A stretch of DNA of 41,339 nt from Candidatus Scalindua sp. Lineage in GTDB: Bacteria > Planctomycetota > Brocadiia > Brocadiales > Scalinduaceae. The translations under genes were made by a program, and so were the position numbers. The notes below the pieces were generated by a model that saw only the letters and a list, made by a program, of their open reading frames with translations, did not search any database and was not told the DNA's origin. Shown here in pieces: positions 22,214-33,943 of this stretch (position 1 is the stretch's first letter; every line of letters begins with the position of its first letter). The stretch spans positions 1 through 41,339 of the forward strand of contig JAIQZR010000054.1 of assembly GCA_021777035.1 (NCBI GenBank), given 5' to 3'.

Positions 22214-23765
22214 ATGCTCATACTCTTATCGTGTGATGTAGCAAAAGCGGAATCTGAAGAAATAGATTTGACAGAGCTTGATTTAGTAGAGCTCATGGAA
22301 ATAGAAGTGGAAACAACTTCTGCAAGAAGGGAATTAAAGGTAACAGAGTCACCATCTACCATTTCAATTATTTCAAGAGACGATATTGAAAATTCCTGGG
22401 CTACAAACATTCCTGGTCTTCTTAGAAATACCCTCGGAATTGATGTAATAGGTATTTATAGTGGAACACATATGGTCAGCCTCAGGGGTTCAAATCCATT
22501 TTCCTCACTAAAAGTTGCAATATTAATTGATGGGCAGGTTCTGGAACCACTCATGTATGGTACGGCTGTTTGGAATCAGTTACCTGTTCCCATAAATGAT
22601 ATTGAAAGAATTGAAGTGGTACGTTCACCAGGCGTATTGTATGGAGCAAATGCATTTCATGGACTTGTCAATATTATTACTAAATCTCCTACAGAAGAAA
22701 CCTCACATACTGTCTCATTGACTGGTGGTGAAATTGAAACTTTTATCGGCACTGCACAAACATCAGGCAAAATTGACAGGGTAGGGTATCGTGTCAGTCT
22801 GGAAAAATATCAAGCGGATGAATATCCAAAAGAAGAGAATAAATACAAATTTGACCGTACCTCAGACAGACACACCATATGCTCGACTTAAATTCAGGAA
22901 GGACCTTTCAGAAGAGTCAAATTATGAGATTCGCCTAAATCATGATTTCAGCTCATTCGAACTGACTAATAATAGGGTACGGAGTCACGGTAGGAATGCT
23001 GGTCACCCAGCAGCAGCACCCCCCGCACAGATCCGTACATGCGGAACTGCCGCATACGGCTCCTACCTCTCAAGTATTTGGCGTCAAAGTAAACTCTCTG
23101 ACGCACCCGGCCCAGTCCATTCAACGTGAAGCTCCGGCTTTGTATCCGGTTCGCGGCTTCCTGCTCCAGGTTCCTCTTGGTCGGCGTCCTTTCCTCCATC
23201 GACTCCGCTGAGACTTCAGTCACATTGTTCGCCGACTTCCCAGGTAATATGTTGCCGTCCGACTCCTCGGGGGATACAACCACAGGCGTACGGTTACTAA
23301 CCTTTCCTGTCGCCTCTGTCGCAGCAGCTTCGGTGTCACGCAGTTTCCTTCCCGAGGTCTACCGATTCTCGCGCGGAGAGTGTCCACACATGCCAGGTTC
23401 TCTGACTCCGCCGGAGCATGGCACCACTCGCATATCGCGATGCCAGGTTTTGCCTTCGCGCCACCCAACTAGCTCGGCCTCCGGAAAAAGGTGTTTTCGG
23501 AGCTCAATAGCCCGCCTGTGCTTCCCCTTGTCAACGCTTCCCCACGCTCTCCTACGCCTTCATTGTAAGACTCTTTCATTCTCTACTCTCCACCGATTTT
23601 AGTCGGCGCTTTCTAGCTGACCCCTATGTTCCTGATCTGCATAAAAGCAAGAGCTCTCTCCTATTTCAGCACACATCACCTTTTATGGAGAGGCATTACT
23701 TTGTATGGGGAGCTCAGGCAACACTTGAGAAAACGAGAGACAGAGGTGAAGAAAAAAGCAGGTAA
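22214..23765 (+). pseudogene. Third TonB-dependent receptor, broken by frameshift and group II intron
   Basis: The frame from 22214 encodes a short leader, the box LTELDLVELMEIEVETTSAR and a good plug (DIERIEVVRSPGVLYGANAF, then HGLVNIITK). A two-base loss near 22870 shifts the frame: DRTSDRHT should continue PYARLKFRKDLSEESNYEIR, which is read in another frame up to about 22975. There an antisense group II intron begins. Beyond it, near 23634-23765, a frame reading DLHKSKSSLLFQHTSPF then HYFVWGAQATLEKT may be a continuation of the barrel, but it ends at once. Most of the barrel is missing. It lies 50 bases after the hybrid kinase. Confidence 0.75.
22977..23621 (-). mobile_element. ORF-less group II intron (antisense to the receptor)
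   Basis: On the minus strand, 23062-23030 reads GAGCCGTATGCGG, then CAGTT, then CCGCATGTACGGATC. This is the 33-nt domain V hairpin of group II introns with the AGC catalytic triad at its base. A domain VI-like stem (GGGTGCTG...CAGCATTCC) follows. The 560 bases before domain V are GC-rich, unlike the surroundings, and resemble domains I-III of bacterial introns (for example GAAAGAGTCTTACAATGAAG). No reverse transcriptase is encoded, so movement would need a protein supplied elsewhere. The exact 5' end is uncertain: a canonical GTGYG was not found, so the element may be truncated there. Confidence 0.75.
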
Positions 23766-28499: not shown

Positions 28500-28946
28500 T
28501 TATGTATCCTTCTTGAGTTGTTCGGCAACTGATGTAAAGAGGATATTTTGAGCTTCAATGAGCTTCTTATATTTGGATTCGATTCTTTCAAGGTTTTTTG
28601 ATCTTACAGCATCAAGTAGATCGCCTTCGATTTCGGCAACTTCAACTCTTTTGTAATAATCCATAGTCTCTTTCAGATGCGCCAATACAATTTTTCCGGT
28701 CAGCACGGGATGGTTATTGGTTACATTTGCGTCCTCAAATATAGTGCCATGTTCCAATTCAACTTCCAGCCCCTGTCGGAAAGTAGCAAGTGAGATATCC
28801 ATATTTGTAGTGTTTACTAATTTCAGAATCGTAGAAGCCTCTTCATCGGAAACGACAGGTTCTGTTATTAATGTCCAGTCTTTCAATCCAAGTTTGTCGC
28901 ATACTCTTTTTACTTCAGCAGTTGTTATATATTCGGTTAAAGGCAT
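28500..28946 (-). CDS. DUF5661-like protein
   Basis: A 148-residue soluble protein. The central block VELEHGTIFEDANVTNNHPV then LTGKIVLAHLKETMDYYKRV matches the recurring DUF5661 pattern (ELEHG, NVTNDDP-type, TGKIALAHL, DYY). Biochemical role unknown. The N-terminal third (MPLTEYITTAEVKRVCDKLG) looks like a small helical domain. It has an AAAGGAGC ribosome binding site. It stands alone on the minus strand, convergent with the TPR gene. Confidence 0.72.
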   Translation of the reverse strand: MPLTEYITTAEVKRVCDKLGLKDWTLITEPVVSDEEASTILKLVNTTNMDISLATFRQGLEVELEHGTIFEDANVTNNHPVLTGKIVLAHLKETMDYYKRVEVAEIEGDLLDAVRSKNLERIESKYKKLIEAQNILFTSVAEQLKKDT

Positions 28947-29093: not shown

Positions 29094-29672
29094 TTACTTG
29101 TATCTTTCGTGACAATTTTTTCTGCTCTGAGCAAGCGATTCTACTGCTGAAATCATTACTTTCAGATCAGAAGTGTTAAATGCTTCGTAGAGAGAATCTG
29201 TCTGTTTCAGAAAGGTCGCATAAAATTCTACTCCTTTGTCCGGATAGGTACACATTGTTTTTGAATCCCGACAAAATCGTTCTATCAGACTGGATTCCGG
29301 GAGGACTTGCTCTACTATGCAACTACTCTTAATAGCTTTTAAGTCTTTTGACATGCGTTTTTTCAAATCTTTGTAGCTTTCAACGTCAGGCACTGTAGAT
29401 GCCGGTTCGACTTTGTCACCCTCTTCCTTATCTTCATCATCTCCTTCATTCAATGATAATGGATTCTCTAATTTAAATTTCAATTTAGAAGAGAAGGTGT
29501 CACCTTTGGCTTTGAGACGGATCTTTACATCTGTCTCAACTGCTATAGAGCACTGCTCTCCGTTTATGGAGACTACTCCTCTTTCCAATTCTTCTGCTAA
29601 CGTTCTCAACTTCTCGGCTGCTTCATTGAGTGAAAGACAAAGCTCTTGTTTTTGCTTATTTGAGTCAGACAT
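29094..29672 (-). CDS. Amphi-Trp / XXXCH domain protein
   Basis: A 192-residue protein. The N-terminal part (about residues 1-90) has the amphi-Trp-like layout: LSLNEAAEKLRTLAEELERG, then GEQCSIAVETDVKIRLKAKG and a paired strand FSSKLKFKLENPL. After an acidic linker (about 85-100), a helical C-terminal region ends RKNCHERYK. It looks like the heme-attachment end of cytochrome c' (CxxCH) but has arginine in place of the first cysteine. This is the hallmark of the XXXCH domain described with the GAK (ATP-grasp/kinase) gene set. No GAK partners are in the window. ATGs at 29672 and 29675 both follow GGAGG. It forms a unit with the gene 23 bases upstream. Confidence 0.75.
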   Translation of the reverse strand: MSDSNKQKQELCLSLNEAAEKLRTLAEELERGVVSINGEQCSIAVETDVKIRLKAKGDTFSSKLKFKLENPLSLNEGDDEDKEEGDKVEPASTVPDVESYKDLKKRMSKDLKAIKSSCIVEQVLPESSLIERFCRDSKTMCTYPDKGVEFYATFLKQTDSLYEAFNTSDLKVMISAVESLAQSRKNCHERYK

Positions 29673-29695
29673 CATTACCTCCATTTCCTTTATGC

Positions 29696-30019
29696 TTAAG
29701 CATAGGATATTTTGGTTATAGGGTAGCTTACGCTCGAACCACTTCTGTCTTTTGCCTGTACATGAGTCCATGGTTCCTCACCGTCAGTCATTCTTACGAA
29801 ATGGAAAGGTAATGGTTGGCGTTGCTTCGGCCCGCCACTCGGATTTATGGTAATACTAACTGTTAAAATCTTTTTACTGGTTGCATGTTCGTCATCCTGA
29901 TCTACAATCACTTCGTCATCAAAGGAATCAGCCATTACAATACCATCAACCCTAAGGAATTTTGTTTTAGCTCTTAAATCCCATTCCGCTTTCGTTATCT
30001 TAATCTTCAAAGTTTCCAT
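29696..30019 (-). CDS. Small protein of unknown function, partner of the XXXCH gene
   Basis: A 107-residue protein with strand-rich sequence (LKIKITKAEWDLRAKTKFLR, VDGIVMADSF, an acidic DQDDEH turn, LTVSITINPSGGPKQRQPLP). No family recognised. There is no signal peptide or membrane helix. The start at 30019 (METLKIK) is preceded by AGGAG at a good distance. The ATG at 30031 overlaps that site and is rejected. The gene ends 23 bases before the XXXCH gene, so the two are probably co-expressed. Confidence 0.8.
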   Translation of the reverse strand: METLKIKITKAEWDLRAKTKFLRVDGIVMADSFDDEVIVDQDDEHATSKKILTVSITINPSGGPKQRQPLPFHFVRMTDGEEPWTHVQAKDRSGSSVSYPITKISYA

Positions 30020-30300
30020 ATGGTAAATCATCTCCTATTAAATAATTTGAAAAATTGCACTTAGTGGAATTAGTCAAAACAGTAAAGATATACAACACCC
30101 TTTACCCTGTGTACCTTAGCAAATACATAAGGAATTGCAACACTAAAAAGCCTGATCTCTTTCTTGTATTTTATAACAAAAATAAATCATATAATGCCAT
30201 GTGATTAAAGAAAATTAATGACTTTGAGGGATTTGTTTATAGAATAGACTACATAGCAATACAATATAATTTGTATCAAACAGAAATGGAGGAAAGAGAG

Positions 30301-31437
30301 ATGTATGTTACCGGAATTGGCAGAACAAAATTTGGAATACTAACGGAAACTATGCCGGAACTGATCTATCAGGCAATGTATAGTGCTATAAATGATAGTC
30401 CTATCTCTATTGAAGATATAGGGGCTGTATATGTTAGCAATTTTATTGGTGGTCCGTCTGAGAAGCAGTTGCATCTAAACTCAGTAGTATCAAGTTTGCT
30501 TCCTGAGCTTAGACTGCCGATTATACGTGTTGAAACAGCATGTGCATCCGGTAGCAGCGCTCTGTATCAGGCGATAATCGCTTTATCACGATTTGAAAAT
30601 ATTCTTATAGTTGGTGTTGAAAAAATGAGCAATGCGACTTCTTCTGAATGCTCTCAGAATCTGGGAATGGCTGGAGATCGAATGGCAGACCAGATGCAGG
30701 GTTTGATTTTTCCAGCACATTATGCCCTTGTCGCCCAACAGCATATGCAAAAATACGGTACTACCCATGAGGATCTCGAGTTGGTCGCATTTAAAAACCA
30801 CAATAACTCCAGACTAAACCCGTTAGCTCATTTCAGTCATAAGGATGTAACCCTTGAAATGATAAAAAACGCACCCGTCATAGCTTCTCCCTTGAATCTA
30901 TTTGATTGTTCACCAATTTCAGATGGTGCTGCTGCCGTCGTAATTTCAAGAAATAAAAGAGACGACAGGGATGTTAAAGTAACGGGATCAGCTCTAGCTA
31001 CAGATCATATCTCTTTGTCTCACCGAAAAGTACACACTTCTCTTGAGGCGGCAAAAGTGGCCAGTAAGGAGGCATATGAACTGGCAGGGATTACTCCCAA
31101 AGATCTGGATATCGTGGAGGTTCATGACTGTTTTACGATCAACGAACTTGTTGCTATGGAAGATCTTGGTATATGCAAGCCGGGGGAGAGTAAAGATTGG
31201 ATCAGGGAGGAGAGGACATCTATTAAAGGCGACGTACCAATAAATACTGATGGAGGTTTAAAGGCGGATGGTCATCCAATAGGCGCTACCGGTCTCGCCC
31301 AGGTGTTTGAAGTTACTACCCAACTGCGAGGAGAAGCAGGAGAACGCCAGGTAGACGGAGCCGAGGTTGGCCTGACACACAATATTGGTGGCGTCGGTGG
31401 GACGGCCGTAATACATATTCTTGAAAGGAGGGGTTAA
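30301..31437 (+). CDS. Thiolase-superfamily protein (archaeal acetoacetyl-CoA thiolase-like)
   Basis: 378 residues with the thiolase active-site cysteine in VETACASGSSA (Cys 81), the catalytic histidine in GGLKADGHPIGATG (His 325) and the C-terminal motif HNIGGVGG (His 360). Classical biosynthetic thiolases have a cysteine (CxGGG) at this last position, while the histidine is usual in SCP-x/archaeal thiolases that work with a DUF35 partner. The reaction would be condensation or cleavage of a 3-ketoacyl-CoA. The ATG at 30301 follows GGAGG by 8 bases. The next gene, which carries a DUF35 domain, starts 1 base after the stop, so tight coupling is likely. Confidence 0.88.
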   Translation: MYVTGIGRTKFGILTETMPELIYQAMYSAINDSPISIEDIGAVYVSNFIGGPSEKQLHLNSVVSSLLPELRLPIIRVETACASGSSALYQAIIALSRFENILIVGVEKMSNATSSECSQNLGMAGDRMADQMQGLIFPAHYALVAQQHMQKYGTTHEDLELVAFKNHNNSRLNPLAHFSHKDVTLEMIKNAPVIASPLNLFDCSPISDGAAAVVISRNKRDDRDVKVTGSALATDHISLSHRKVHTSLEAAKVASKEAYELAGITPKDLDIVEVHDCFTINELVAMEDLGICKPGESKDWIREERTSIKGDVPINTDGGLKADGHPIGATGLAQVFEVTTQLRGEAGERQVDGAEVGLTHNIGGVGGTAVIHILERRG

Positions 31438-31438
31438 C

Positions 31439-32545
31439 GTGGTATACGAGTGTGAAGATTGCCAGAAACAGTGGTATTATAACGTAAAAAAATGCATCTT
31501 CTGCCAGGGGGATGTCATAGAATTGGAGCCAGGCAAGAGCACTGTAAGAGGAATCACTAAGATAGAGATTCCCTCACCCGGACACACCAGGGTTCCCTAT
31601 TGTGATCTTCTGTTAGAGGATGAATATGGAAACTTTGAAATAAGGAAATCTTTTTCAGATCATGATTTGGGTGAAATGATAGAGGCAGTGCCGAAAGAAG
31701 CTAAAAAGGTAGCTAAAAGCAGGACTATAGGAATAGTGGGTGCGGGGACGATGGGTAGTGGTATTGCTCAGATTTGTGCTCAAACAGGTTATCATGTTCT
31801 GGTGATTGATCGGCACGAAGAGACTGCCAGAAAGGCACTCATAAAGATCGATAAAGCACTTTCTAAAACGACTAAAGATGATTTGAAACAGGAAATTCTC
31901 AACAGAATCAAGGCGACAACCAACCTGTATGAGATGGAGCATGCTGACCTTGTCATAGAGGTATTGACAGAGGATATGGAGTTGAAGAAAGAGGTTTTCA
32001 GGGAACTGGATAATGAGTGTTCCAAAGATACCATCTTTGCGACCAACACCTCTTCACTTTCTGTAACTGAGTTATCTGAGGTGCTGAAAGATCCCGGCAG
32101 GCTTGTAGGTCTTCATTTTTTCAATCCGGTTCCGAGAATGAAGCTGGTTGAAATAATACGGTCAAAGAACACATCGGAGGAAGTAATTGAATATGCAAAG
32201 GAGGTCGCATTTGAATTGGACAAAACTCCTGTAGTTACAGGTGATGCGCCAGGTTTTATTGTAAATCGACTTCTTCTGATATTCTTGAATGAAGCTATAG
32301 ATAAATACGCCGATGGTACTTCGACAGCAGCGGACATTGATAAGGCCGTGACACTGGGTCTTAATCATCCCATGGGACCGTTGGCATTATCAGATCTAAT
32401 TGGTCTTGATGTTTGTAAGGCAATTCTGGATGTGTTATATGAAGGATACAAAGAACCCAAATACAAGCCATGCAAGACACTATGCGAGATGGTTGAGAAA
32501 GGTACACTTGGCAGAAAGACAGGAGAAGGATTTTATAAGTATTAA
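31439..32545 (+). CDS. DUF35 (zinc ribbon + OB fold) fused to 3-hydroxyacyl-CoA dehydrogenase
   Basis: 368 residues, starting with GTG after AAGGAGG. Residues 1-30 form a zinc ribbon (Cys 5, 8, 19, 22). Residues about 33-90 form a short OB-like domain (STVRGITKIEIPSPG, VPYCDLLLEDEYGN), the DUF35 pattern. From residue 95 a Rossmann domain (GIVGAGTMGSGIAQ), then the dehydrogenase signature GLHFFNPVPRMKLVEII and the C-terminal domain DAPGFIVNRLLL...NHPMGPLALSDLIGLD. This enzyme class interconverts 3-ketoacyl- and 3-hydroxyacyl-CoA with NAD(H). Freestanding DUF35 proteins hold thiolase and a second enzyme together, and here the scaffold is part of the second enzyme. Confidence 0.9.
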   Translation: MVYECEDCQKQWYYNVKKCIFCQGDVIELEPGKSTVRGITKIEIPSPGHTRVPYCDLLLEDEYGNFEIRKSFSDHDLGEMIEAVPKEAKKVAKSRTIGIVGAGTMGSGIAQICAQTGYHVLVIDRHEETARKALIKIDKALSKTTKDDLKQEILNRIKATTNLYEMEHADLVIEVLTEDMELKKEVFRELDNECSKDTIFATNTSSLSVTELSEVLKDPGRLVGLHFFNPVPRMKLVEIIRSKNTSEEVIEYAKEVAFELDKTPVVTGDAPGFIVNRLLLIFLNEAIDKYADGTSTAADIDKAVTLGLNHPMGPLALSDLIGLDVCKAILDVLYEGYKEPKYKPCKTLCEMVEKGTLGRKTGEGFYKY

Positions 32546-32578
32546 TACCCCACCCTGCTTATTTGGAGGATATAGACA

Positions 32579-33943
32579 ATGAATGAGAACAACAAACTTA
32601 TTGAAGAACTTGCAGATAAAATTAAAACAGGTAAAGTCCAGCCCTGGAAGGCTGAATCAGTCCTGCTTGAAGAATATGATGTCCGCGCTCCTGAGCATTT
32701 TCAGATTGCAGCATTAAGCAGAAGGAAGTGTATAGAGGAGTTAACCGGTCAGAAGTTTAATTATTTAGAATTGCCTGAAAAACCTTACTTGATGCAATGG
32801 CACTGCCCAAAAGATAACTCAATCTGGCAGTTAGAAGCGAGGGACACGGATACCGTCTGTACTCACTGTGGATCCGCACTGGAACCGCATGGATCCGGAT
32901 CAGATAGATTTCTGCCGCTGGTAAATAACTATATCGGTGGTAAAGAGGAGTACTACTCCTCTGCCGGTCAGATAAAGGTCTTTGGGGATGTTGATAAAAC
33001 CTTTACCAATTTATTAGCCTATGGCCCTGGATTCGGATCGATCGGGATTAGTGTTGGCTGTTTCCGTATAAATAAATTGGGCGGAGCTGAAGTAAAAGTT
33101 GGCAAATGGGCTGGAGCAGCACGTAATTTAGGATATATTTTTGAAAGTGAAGAAGATCGCGAAAAAGCAGTAATAGTTGCAAAGGAGTCACTTCCTGTCT
33201 TGAGGAAAGAGATGGAGGAAAAATATCTGTCTGAGTTCAGTGGTGAAATTTACGAGGTTGAATTTGTCAGGCGTCAACATCATGGTCAGTTTTTTATCTA
33301 CATCTGTTTCTATACCAGATTTGAACATGCTCGTGGACACGGTGTTACTTCAGCAGCAGTAGGATTTGCCCGGGGCCGTTTAGATGCGGAATTTATAGAT
33401 AAAGGCGTTACATACATACAGAGTCTTATCGCCATGGGTTTTGACGGAGACCTGAAACCGTCGCCGAGAAATCGGCGTGGACGTTATGTCTCCGCACAGG
33501 TTAAAATGCCTATACAGGCTTACGAGAAAATGAGCAAGACTGGAATTGATAAATTGATGTCGTATATGGAGATTGACCGTCAAGGAGTTATGCAGGAACA
33601 GGGAGGGTTTGTTTACTCCGGAATGGGAGGGGAGATAATCCCCGCACTCTACCGCGGAACTAAAGTCAACCCGCGTCCGTATAACGTTTCCTGTACCGAA
33701 AACGTCTACGTAGAGACCAGAGGAGAAGACGTAATATTTGGAGTAGAATTACCCAATCTTGAAGTAGGTGCTGCTTCAAATAAAGAAGGGCCGATCTGTC
33801 CAACTGCCAGAGAAGTCCTTAAGTTTATGGGCATAGGGACATCAAAAGAGTTTGCTGCAGCTGCCGCTGCCATGACTCTTGCGGGCGAGTTCAACTTCAC
33901 ATTGCTTCACTTGCGTGGTGAAATGTATGCGAGCAGTAAATAA
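32579..33943 (+). CDS. HMG-CoA-reductase-like protein with zinc-ribbon insert and altered active site
   Basis: 454 residues. The C-terminal 160 resemble class I/archaeal HMG-CoA reductases in order: GDLKP (290-294; family DKKP), GRYVSAQVKMP, GGFVYSG, NVSCTENV, VELPNLEVGA (family MPSIEVGT) and TLAGEFNF (family AGELSL). The catalytic aspartate (GQD) appears replaced, and the terminal catalytic histidine (GH/SHM) reads RGEM. Residues 75-97 carry His-Cys and CTHC, a probable zinc site not seen in the usual enzyme. Thus the fold is likely conserved but the chemistry is uncertain. A TGGAGGA site precedes the ATG, and it lies 33 bases after the dehydrogenase. The homology was judged by eye. Confidence 0.55.
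   Translation: MNENNKLIEELADKIKTGKVQPWKAESVLLEEYDVRAPEHFQIAALSRRKCIEELTGQKFNYLELPEKPYLMQWHCPKDNSIWQLEARDTDTVCTHCGSALEPHGSGSDRFLPLVNNYIGGKEEYYSSAGQIKVFGDVDKTFTNLLAYGPGFGSIGISVGCFRINKLGGAEVKVGKWAGAARNLGYIFESEEDREKAVIVAKESLPVLRKEMEEKYLSEFSGEIYEVEFVRRQHHGQFFIYICFYTRFEHARGHGVTSAAVGFARGRLDAEFIDKGVTYIQSLIAMGFDGDLKPSPRNRRGRYVSAQVKMPIQAYEKMSKTGIDKLMSYMEIDRQGVMQEQGGFVYSGMGGEIIPALYRGTKVNPRPYNVSCTENVYVETRGEDVIFGVELPNLEVGAASNKEGPICPTAREVLKFMGIGTSKEFAAAAAAMTLAGEFNFTLLHLRGEMYASSK

What the first reader, a model, noticed from the sequence alone, without database searches (positions are those of the whole stretch)
30301..33943. Thiolase / DUF35-dehydrogenase / HMG-CoA-reductase-like cassette
Archaeal mevalonate synthesis uses a thiolase and HMG-CoA synthase joined by a DUF35 protein, followed by HMG-CoA reductase. 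Here the thiolase is of that type and DUF35 is present, but HMG-CoA synthase is replaced by a 3-hydroxyacyl-CoA dehydrogenase, and the reductase homologue has an altered active site. The three genes are tightly spaced (1 and 33 bases). One reading is a rewired pathway that condenses acyl-CoAs, channels and reduces the product, and then acts on the thioester. The product is unknown. A link to unusual planctomycete lipids is speculation.
Basis: partly seen in the sequence, partly recalled or inferred. Interest (0 to 1): 0.75.

Follow-up and report, generated by a model that had tools for sequence, protein, structure and literature searches.

The report
Anammox acyl-CoA operon, HMGR-like enzyme
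In some anammox bacteria (which turn ammonium into nitrogen gas), three neighbouring genes appear to make and modify a short acyl-CoA molecule, using a relative of the cholesterol enzyme HMG-CoA reductase whose catalytic centre has been replaced.

Summary
Observation confirmed. The window comes from a Candidatus Scalindua-like genome. In order it has an archaeal/SCP2-type thiolase, a zinc-ribbon (DUF35-like) domain fused to a 3-hydroxyacyl-CoA dehydrogenase, and an HMG-CoA-reductase-fold protein (hmgrL), 1 and 33 bases apart. The same order occurs in 11 genomes of three families; the full-length fusion was found in those 11 of 44 genomes only. Thiolase and dehydrogenase keep their catalytic motifs; all three genes are under purifying selection. 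It is not a mevalonate pathway in this genome: no HMG-CoA synthase match, IspG present, HMGR catalytic positions changed or missing. hmgrL belongs to a family (21 sequences, two phyla) with a different invariant active site; in Desulfobacterota a dienelactone-hydrolase-like gene follows it in 8 of 10. My reading: the adaptor docks dehydrogenase on thiolase, coupling condensation and reduction (or the reverse), and hmgrL acts on the hydroxyacyl-CoA by non-HMGR chemistry. Substrate, direction and product are unknown; the DUF35 call is moderate. A ladderane link is not supported: 26 of 34 hydrazine-synthase-positive genomes lack the intact operon.

The parts
30301..31437 (+). Thiolase, archaeal/SCP2-type, 378 aa; catalytic motifs C81 (TACASG), HDCF (H275, C277) and GHP (H325) present
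   Evidence: role of the motifs recalled, Cys and His also from PMC6392133 passages
31439..31720 (+). N-terminal 94 residues of the fusion: zinc ribbon (C5, C8, C19, C22) plus OB-like part; DUF35-like thiolase-docking adaptor (inferred)
   Evidence: alignment A5; hhalign to 10 DUF35 proteins P = 1.2e-4, probability 55.6%; shuffle control; found only in cassette genomes, plus an 82-residue piece in G006
31721..32545 (+). 3-hydroxyacyl-CoA dehydrogenase part of the fusion (GAGTMGSG NAD motif; TSSL, H226, E238 and N276 present)
   Evidence: catalytic residue roles recalled
32579..33943 (+). HMGR-fold protein (hmgrL), 454 aa, with a CPKD...CTHC ribbon near the N-terminus; the four HMGR catalytic positions changed or absent
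   Evidence: single-sequence PDB search found no HMGR

Best explanation
The three genes form one anammox-lineage operon of acyl-CoA metabolism, not a mevalonate pathway. Step 1 (inferred from intact motifs): the thiolase condenses two acyl-CoAs, most simply acetyl-CoA, to a 3-oxoacyl-CoA, or cleaves one. Step 2 (inferred): the dehydrogenase, fused to a DUF35-like adaptor, docks on the thiolase and interconverts the 3-oxoacyl-CoA with an (S)-3-hydroxyacyl-CoA using NAD(H). Tying the unfavourable condensation to the reduction plays the part that HMG-CoA synthase plays in the archaeal thiolase/DUF35/HMGCS complex. Step 3 (inferred, weakest): the HMGR-fold enzyme takes the hydroxyacyl-CoA. It keeps the fold and part of the substrate pocket (D291 and K293 at human D690 and K692) but has lost the Glu, Lys, Asp and His of HMGR catalysis. 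Its reaction is therefore probably not the HMGR four-electron reduction; more likely it transforms the thioester (hydrolysis, lactone or acyl transfer, dehydration). Shown: the genes, their order, co-occurrence, purifying selection, residue changes and homology to HMGR. Not shown: complex, substrate, direction, product.
For: Gene order identical in 11 of 11 genomes holding the full-length fusion; thiolase-to-fusion gap always 1-10 bases. In G002, G011 and G012 only a 3' piece of hmgrL remains, in G002 and G012 next to the same downstream genes and in G011 between the same neighbours, so the cassette was lost there. dN/dS in the three closest comparisons: thiolase 0.020-0.037, fusion 0.042-0.049, hmgrL 0.066-0.077. 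Catalytic motifs of the first two enzymes are present. Precedent for the docking: Shy, an N-terminal DUF35 plus hydratase encoded downstream of the thiolase-like aldolase Sal, binds Sal through DUF35 (PMC11321319, passages). HMGR homology: family profile to 6hr7 E = 8.8e-12; 14 of 14 members scanned match PF00368 at E <= 0.1; Foldseek ranks HMGR first, 4.7e-9, on a poor model. Residues: human E559, K691, D767, H866 (roles from PMC7503714 passages) correspond to P/T150 (12 and 8 of 20), L292 (20 of 21, F in 1), N364 (21 of 21) and no histidine after residue 444; N755 corresponds to E352 (21 of 21). No HMG-CoA synthase match in G000, no second HMGR match there, IspG present.
Confidence: 0.5

Rival explanations
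1. Catabolic module: the operon runs in the beta-oxidation direction. hmgrL releases or prepares a 3-hydroxyacyl-CoA, the dehydrogenase oxidises it, the thiolase splits it to acetyl-CoA, letting Scalindua use small organic acids.
For: Both reactions are reversible (recalled). Scalindua is described as having the greater ability to use small organic acids (PMC3655542, passages). The best-scoring NCBIfam model for the dehydrogenase is 3-hydroxybutyryl-CoA dehydrogenase PRK05808, 349 bits, below its 408 cut-off. In the Desulfobacterales locus L036 hmgrL lies near CoA-transferase-like and short-chain-dehydrogenase-like genes (labels from my reading of the sequences).
Against: I see no acyl-CoA dehydrogenase, enoyl-CoA hydratase or CoA ligase among the neighbouring ORFs (by reading). 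Thiolases paired with DUF35 include biosynthetic (6esq) and catabolic (BbsAB, recalled) enzymes, so type does not decide.
Confidence: 0.3
2. hmgrL is a catalytically dead HMGR-fold subunit (scaffold or regulator) rather than an enzyme.
For: All four HMGR catalytic positions are changed or missing.
Against: 96 positions are invariant across the 21 sequences (gaps ignored), including many charged ones: R252, H254, D289, D291, K293, R300, R302, D333, R334, E352, R366, E390, E395, E403, R411, E412, E437. That suggests a rebuilt active site.
Confidence: 0.15
3. Remnant or variant mevalonate pathway: the HMGR homologue still makes mevalonate.
For: HMGR homology and a thiolase plus DUF35-like neighbourhood. 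4 of 44 genomes, three of them cassette bearers (G004, G010, G021; also cassette-free G019), have a partial HMG-CoA synthase match in a frame of 419-442 aa.
Against: No HMG-CoA synthase match in the window's genome (PF08540). IspG of the MEP pathway found in 9 of 11 cassette genomes. hmgrL scores 26.4 bits against an NCBIfam HMGR cut-off of 441.8.
Confidence: 0.03
4. The operon makes a precursor of ladderanes or another anammox-specific lipid.
For: Among the Planctomycetota sampled (392 genomes) the matches all lie in the window's order.
Against: 26 of 34 hydrazine-synthase-positive genomes lack the intact cassette, some of them incomplete assemblies. A lipid found only in some Scalindua is not excluded.
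Confidence: 0.07

Closest known systems
Archaeal acetoacetyl-CoA thiolase / DUF35 / HMG-CoA synthase complex (6esq)
   Same: Thiolase subunit homologous (2.3e-75); a zinc-ribbon/OB-like element is encoded directly after the thiolase here
   Different: HMG-CoA synthase replaced by a 3-hydroxyacyl-CoA dehydrogenase fused to the adaptor; DUF35 homology only moderate
Shy-Sal bile-acid hydratase-aldolase complex (DUF35-MaoC fusion)
   Same: Adaptor at the N-terminus of the enzyme of the neighbouring step, encoded downstream of a thiolase-fold partner (PMC11321319, passages)
   Different: Partner is a true thiolase by motifs, the fused enzyme is a dehydrogenase, and there is a third HMGR-fold protein
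Benzoylsuccinyl-CoA thiolase BbsAB (7pxp)
   Same: Thiolase subunit homologous (2.8e-51); works with a DUF35 subunit (recalled)
   Different: DUF35 subunit separate from any dehydrogenase (recalled)
HMG-CoA reductase (6hr7, Methanothermococcus; human 1dq8)
   Same: Homology at profile level; D690 and K692 equivalents kept
   Different: E559, K691, D767, H866 changed or missing, DAMGMN stretch replaced, extra N-terminal ribbon; partner genes differ

Membership tests
HMG-CoA reductase | HMGR sequence homology and fold | tested here: met
   profile to 6hr7 8.8e-12; 14 of 14 members scanned match PF00368 at E <= 0.1; Foldseek ranks HMGR first on a low-confidence model; VIA-align does not separate its S-domain from other ferredoxin-like folds
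HMG-CoA reductase | catalytic Glu, Lys, Asp, His (human 559, 691, 767, 866) | tested here: not met
   P/T150, L/F292, N364; no histidine after residue 444. Human numbers of aligned motifs partly recalled; E559 from the 6hr7 alignment only; alignments stop before H866
HMG-CoA reductase | NCBIfam equivalog cut-off | tested here: not met
   26.4 bits against 441.8; other members 25.4-35.5 or no match among 5 scanned
HMG-CoA reductase | NADPH-dependent reduction of HMG-CoA | not testable with these tools
   needs an assay; the DAMGMN stretch aligns with RGHGVTS
DUF35 (PF01796 and its ribbon) | Pfam match over cut-off | tested here: not met
   4 of the 11 fusion N-termini were scanned, none matched a DUF35 model; no PF01796 match in G000 at E <= 1
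DUF35 (PF01796 and its ribbon) | zinc ribbon followed by OB fold | tested here: inconclusive
   collinear hhalign over 84 columns, P = 1.2e-4; 2 of 60 shuffles keeping the cysteines and 0 of 60 keeping the ribbon scored as high; model poor
Thiolase, SCP2/archaeal type | thiolase domains and Cys, HDCF, GHP motifs | tested here: met
   (PRK06064 427.8 over 420)
3-hydroxyacyl-CoA dehydrogenase | both 3HCDH domains and catalytic motifs | tested here: met
   residue roles recalled
Archaeal thiolase/DUF35/HMGCS system | HMG-CoA synthase subunit | tested here: not met
   absent from the operon and not matched in G000
Ladderane biosynthesis genes | present in anammox genomes generally | tested here: not met
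   intact cassette in 8 of 34 hydrazine-synthase-positive genomes

The most novel reading that the evidence does not exclude
hmgrL founds a new enzyme family: an HMGR fold that has exchanged its reductase quartet for a different invariant active site (D289/D291/K293/E352/N364/R366) and catalyses non-HMGR chemistry on hydroxyacyl-CoAs. In anammox bacteria a DUF35-like adaptor fused to the dehydrogenase channels such a substrate to it from a thiolase; in Desulfobacterota a dienelactone-hydrolase-like enzyme works with it instead.
Probability: 0.35. Interest if true: 0.75.

Novelty: new variant of a known kind. Interest (0 to 1): 0.55.

Why it matters
HMG-CoA reductase is a textbook enzyme, and I know of no relative using its fold for another reaction (recalled; not systematically searched). 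A conserved family with that fold and a rebuilt active site, tied in anammox bacteria to a thiolase and an adaptor-fused dehydrogenase, would be a new acyl-CoA pathway in organisms important to ocean nitrogen loss, and would extend the DUF35 docking principle to dehydrogenases.

Tried and rejected
Mevalonate pathway rejected for this genome. Ladderane or general anammox lipid link not supported (with 7, 24, 31). Plasmid carriage: no plasmid match for hmgrL. A Desulfobacterota source of the whole cassette: the fusion's N-terminal domain was found in 0 of 395 genomes of that phylum; the tool warns that an empty answer without a known positive in the set shows nothing, though the same query found all 4 cassette genomes present in a 392-genome Planctomycetota sample.

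Literature searches without a relevant hit: Scalindua + HMG-CoA reductase, 0 papers; Scalindua + thiolase, 2, listing seen only; DUF35 + 3-hydroxyacyl-CoA dehydrogenase, 3, passages of one read; HMG-CoA reductase with dienelactone hydrolase, Desulfobacterota or sulfate-reducing, 1, listing only, irrelevant; anammox + HMG terms too broad to judge, 5 of 1,107 listed. Further listings.

Rows set aside: alignment A4 holds 14 of the 21 hmgrL sequences; L066 and L069 are cut by contig ends. dN/dS comparisons with saturated dS (printed inf: 3 thiolase, 2 fusion, 4 hmgrL) were not used, and of the rest I quote the three closest; the others range up to 0.041, 0.062 and 0.056. G006 has only an 82-residue piece of the fusion (93% identity) and is not counted among the 11.
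Full report
What is there. The window is contig C154 of a 4.16-Mb, 204-contig genome. Relatives found by hmgrL, where named, are Candidatus Scalindua, Candidatus Brocadiaceae S225, Candidatus Anammoxibacter and one Desulfobacterales bacterium, so I take the window for an anammox-lineage planctomycete. The PF18582 hydrazine synthase model matches 34 of 44 genomes of the order but not the window's own, G004 or G008; I guess assembly gaps. Three genes lie on the + strand: thiolase 30301-31437, fusion 31439-32545, hmgrL 32579-33943, with gaps of 1 and 33 bases. A response regulator, groES and groEL (by my reading) and a purB-like gene follow.

Conservation. hmgrL was sought in 39 genomes (own included): 10 have a full-length copy and 3 have fragments. 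A sample of 392 Planctomycetota genomes (E <= 1e-20) added one more full-length copy, G299, of another family of the order. The fusion was sought in 44 genomes (E <= 1e-20): 11 have a match covering all of it, and these are the 11 with full-length hmgrL. Other matches are dehydrogenases that start at about residue 78 or later, except an 82-residue N-terminal piece in G006. Thiolase, fusion and hmgrL are in the same order and strand in 11 of 11. A profile of the N-terminal 94 residues found 4 of 392 Planctomycetota genomes, the 4 intact-cassette genomes of that sample, and 0 of 395 Desulfobacterota. In G002, G011 and G012 no thiolase or fusion was seen in the fetched stretch, and a 3' piece of hmgrL is left beside the response regulator and groES-groEL genes. 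In the hmgrL tree rooted on the Desulfobacterota sequences the 11 anammox-lineage copies group together (0.998), G021 and then G299 branching before the window's family (0.73 and 0.93), in keeping with vertical descent and repeated loss. dN/dS for the three closest comparisons is 0.020-0.037 (thiolase), 0.042-0.049 (fusion) and 0.066-0.077 (hmgrL); groEL gives 0.050 in the one of these pairs where it was at hand, and 0.040-0.055 over four pairs.

The enzymes. The thiolase scores above the NCBIfam PRK06064 cut-off, has archaeal 6esq among its two best PDB matches, and has the Cys, HDCF and GHP motifs. The dehydrogenase part has both 3HCDH domains and the expected motifs (roles recalled). Its N-terminal domain has four invariant cysteines and conserved RVPYC, LLLED and GNF stretches in 11 of 11. 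No DUF35 model matched the 4 N-termini scanned or anything in G000. Profile comparison with 10 DUF35 proteins from genomes of the Desulfobacterota sample aligns 84 columns collinearly, P = 1.2e-4, probability 55.6%; 2 of 60 shuffles keeping the cysteines, and 0 of 60 shuffling only the part after the ribbon, scored as high. I therefore call it DUF35-like.

hmgrL. The window sequence alone finds no HMGR in the PDB, but the family profile finds the Methanothermococcus enzyme at 8.8e-12 and human HMGR at 0.0036. Human catalytic residues are K691, E559, D767 and H866 (PMC7503714, passages). In the alignments these fall on L292 (L in 20, F in 1 of 21), P/T150 (12 and 8 of 20), N364 (21 of 21) and no histidine after residue 444; the E559 position comes from the 6hr7 alignment alone, no alignment reaches H866, and I placed the human numbers on the aligned motifs partly from memory. 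D690 and K692 are kept as D291 and K293 (21 of 21 each), and N755 becomes E352 (21 of 21). The protein has a further CxxD...CxxC ribbon near its N-terminus. A shallow AlphaFold model was poor (mean pLDDT 47.7); Foldseek still ranks HMGR first, but VIA-align fits unrelated ferredoxin-like chains as well as HMGR S-domains, so the sequence profile carries the claim.

Elsewhere. In 395 genomes of the Desulfobacterota phylum hmgrL occurs in 10 at E <= 1e-20, 43-55% identical to the window's over the matched parts. None has the thiolase or fusion in the fetched 5.6-20 kb around it. In 8 of 10 a dienelactone-hydrolase-like gene follows it (PF01738 in the 5 scanned); of the other two, one contig ends 90 bases past hmgrL and one is the most divergent member. 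Six of six inspected hydrolases have a GxSRGG motif.

Interpretation. The window's genome has no HMG-CoA synthase match, no other HMGR match and has IspG, so this is not mevalonate synthesis there; 3 of 11 cassette genomes do have a partial synthase-like match of unknown meaning. DUF35 domains fused to the enzyme of a neighbouring step and docking on a thiolase-fold partner are known from Shy-Sal (PMC11321319, passages). By that precedent the fusion probably holds the dehydrogenase on the thiolase. The HMGR-fold enzyme probably acts next, on the 3-hydroxyacyl-CoA, by another reaction. Direction, substrate and product are inference. The lipid idea is weakened because 26 of 34 hydrazine-synthase-positive genomes lack the intact cassette, some of them incomplete.

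Papers. PMC7503714, PMC11321319, PMC6392133, PMC3655542, PMC8084838 and PMC2649909 were seen as found passages only; others as search listings.

Noticed in passing
L036, L062-L067, L069 (Desulfobacterota): hmgrL is followed by a dienelactone-hydrolase-like gene in 8 of 10 genomes: a conserved two-gene unit of unknown function.
   Followed up: partly
window 29696-30031 (-): Conserved 111-aa hypothetical protein divergent from the cassette in 10 of the 11 intact loci, and still present in cassette-free G011 and partly in G012.
   Followed up: partly
window 29094-29771 (-): Protein with a XXXCH domain of the GAK system and a weak amphi-Trp match.
   Followed up: no
window 28500-28946 (-): DUF5661 protein.
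   Followed up: no
window 22214-22891 (+): 225-aa TonB-receptor-like ORF that looks truncated (label from reading).
   Followed up: no
G004, G010, G019, G021: Frames of 419-442 aa with partial HMG-CoA synthase C-domain matches, absent from the window's genome; possibly polyketide-type HMG synthases (guess).
   Followed up: no
G000 (window's own genome): No hydrazine synthase alpha (PF18582) match although 34 of 44 genomes have one; likely an assembly gap (guess).
   Followed up: no
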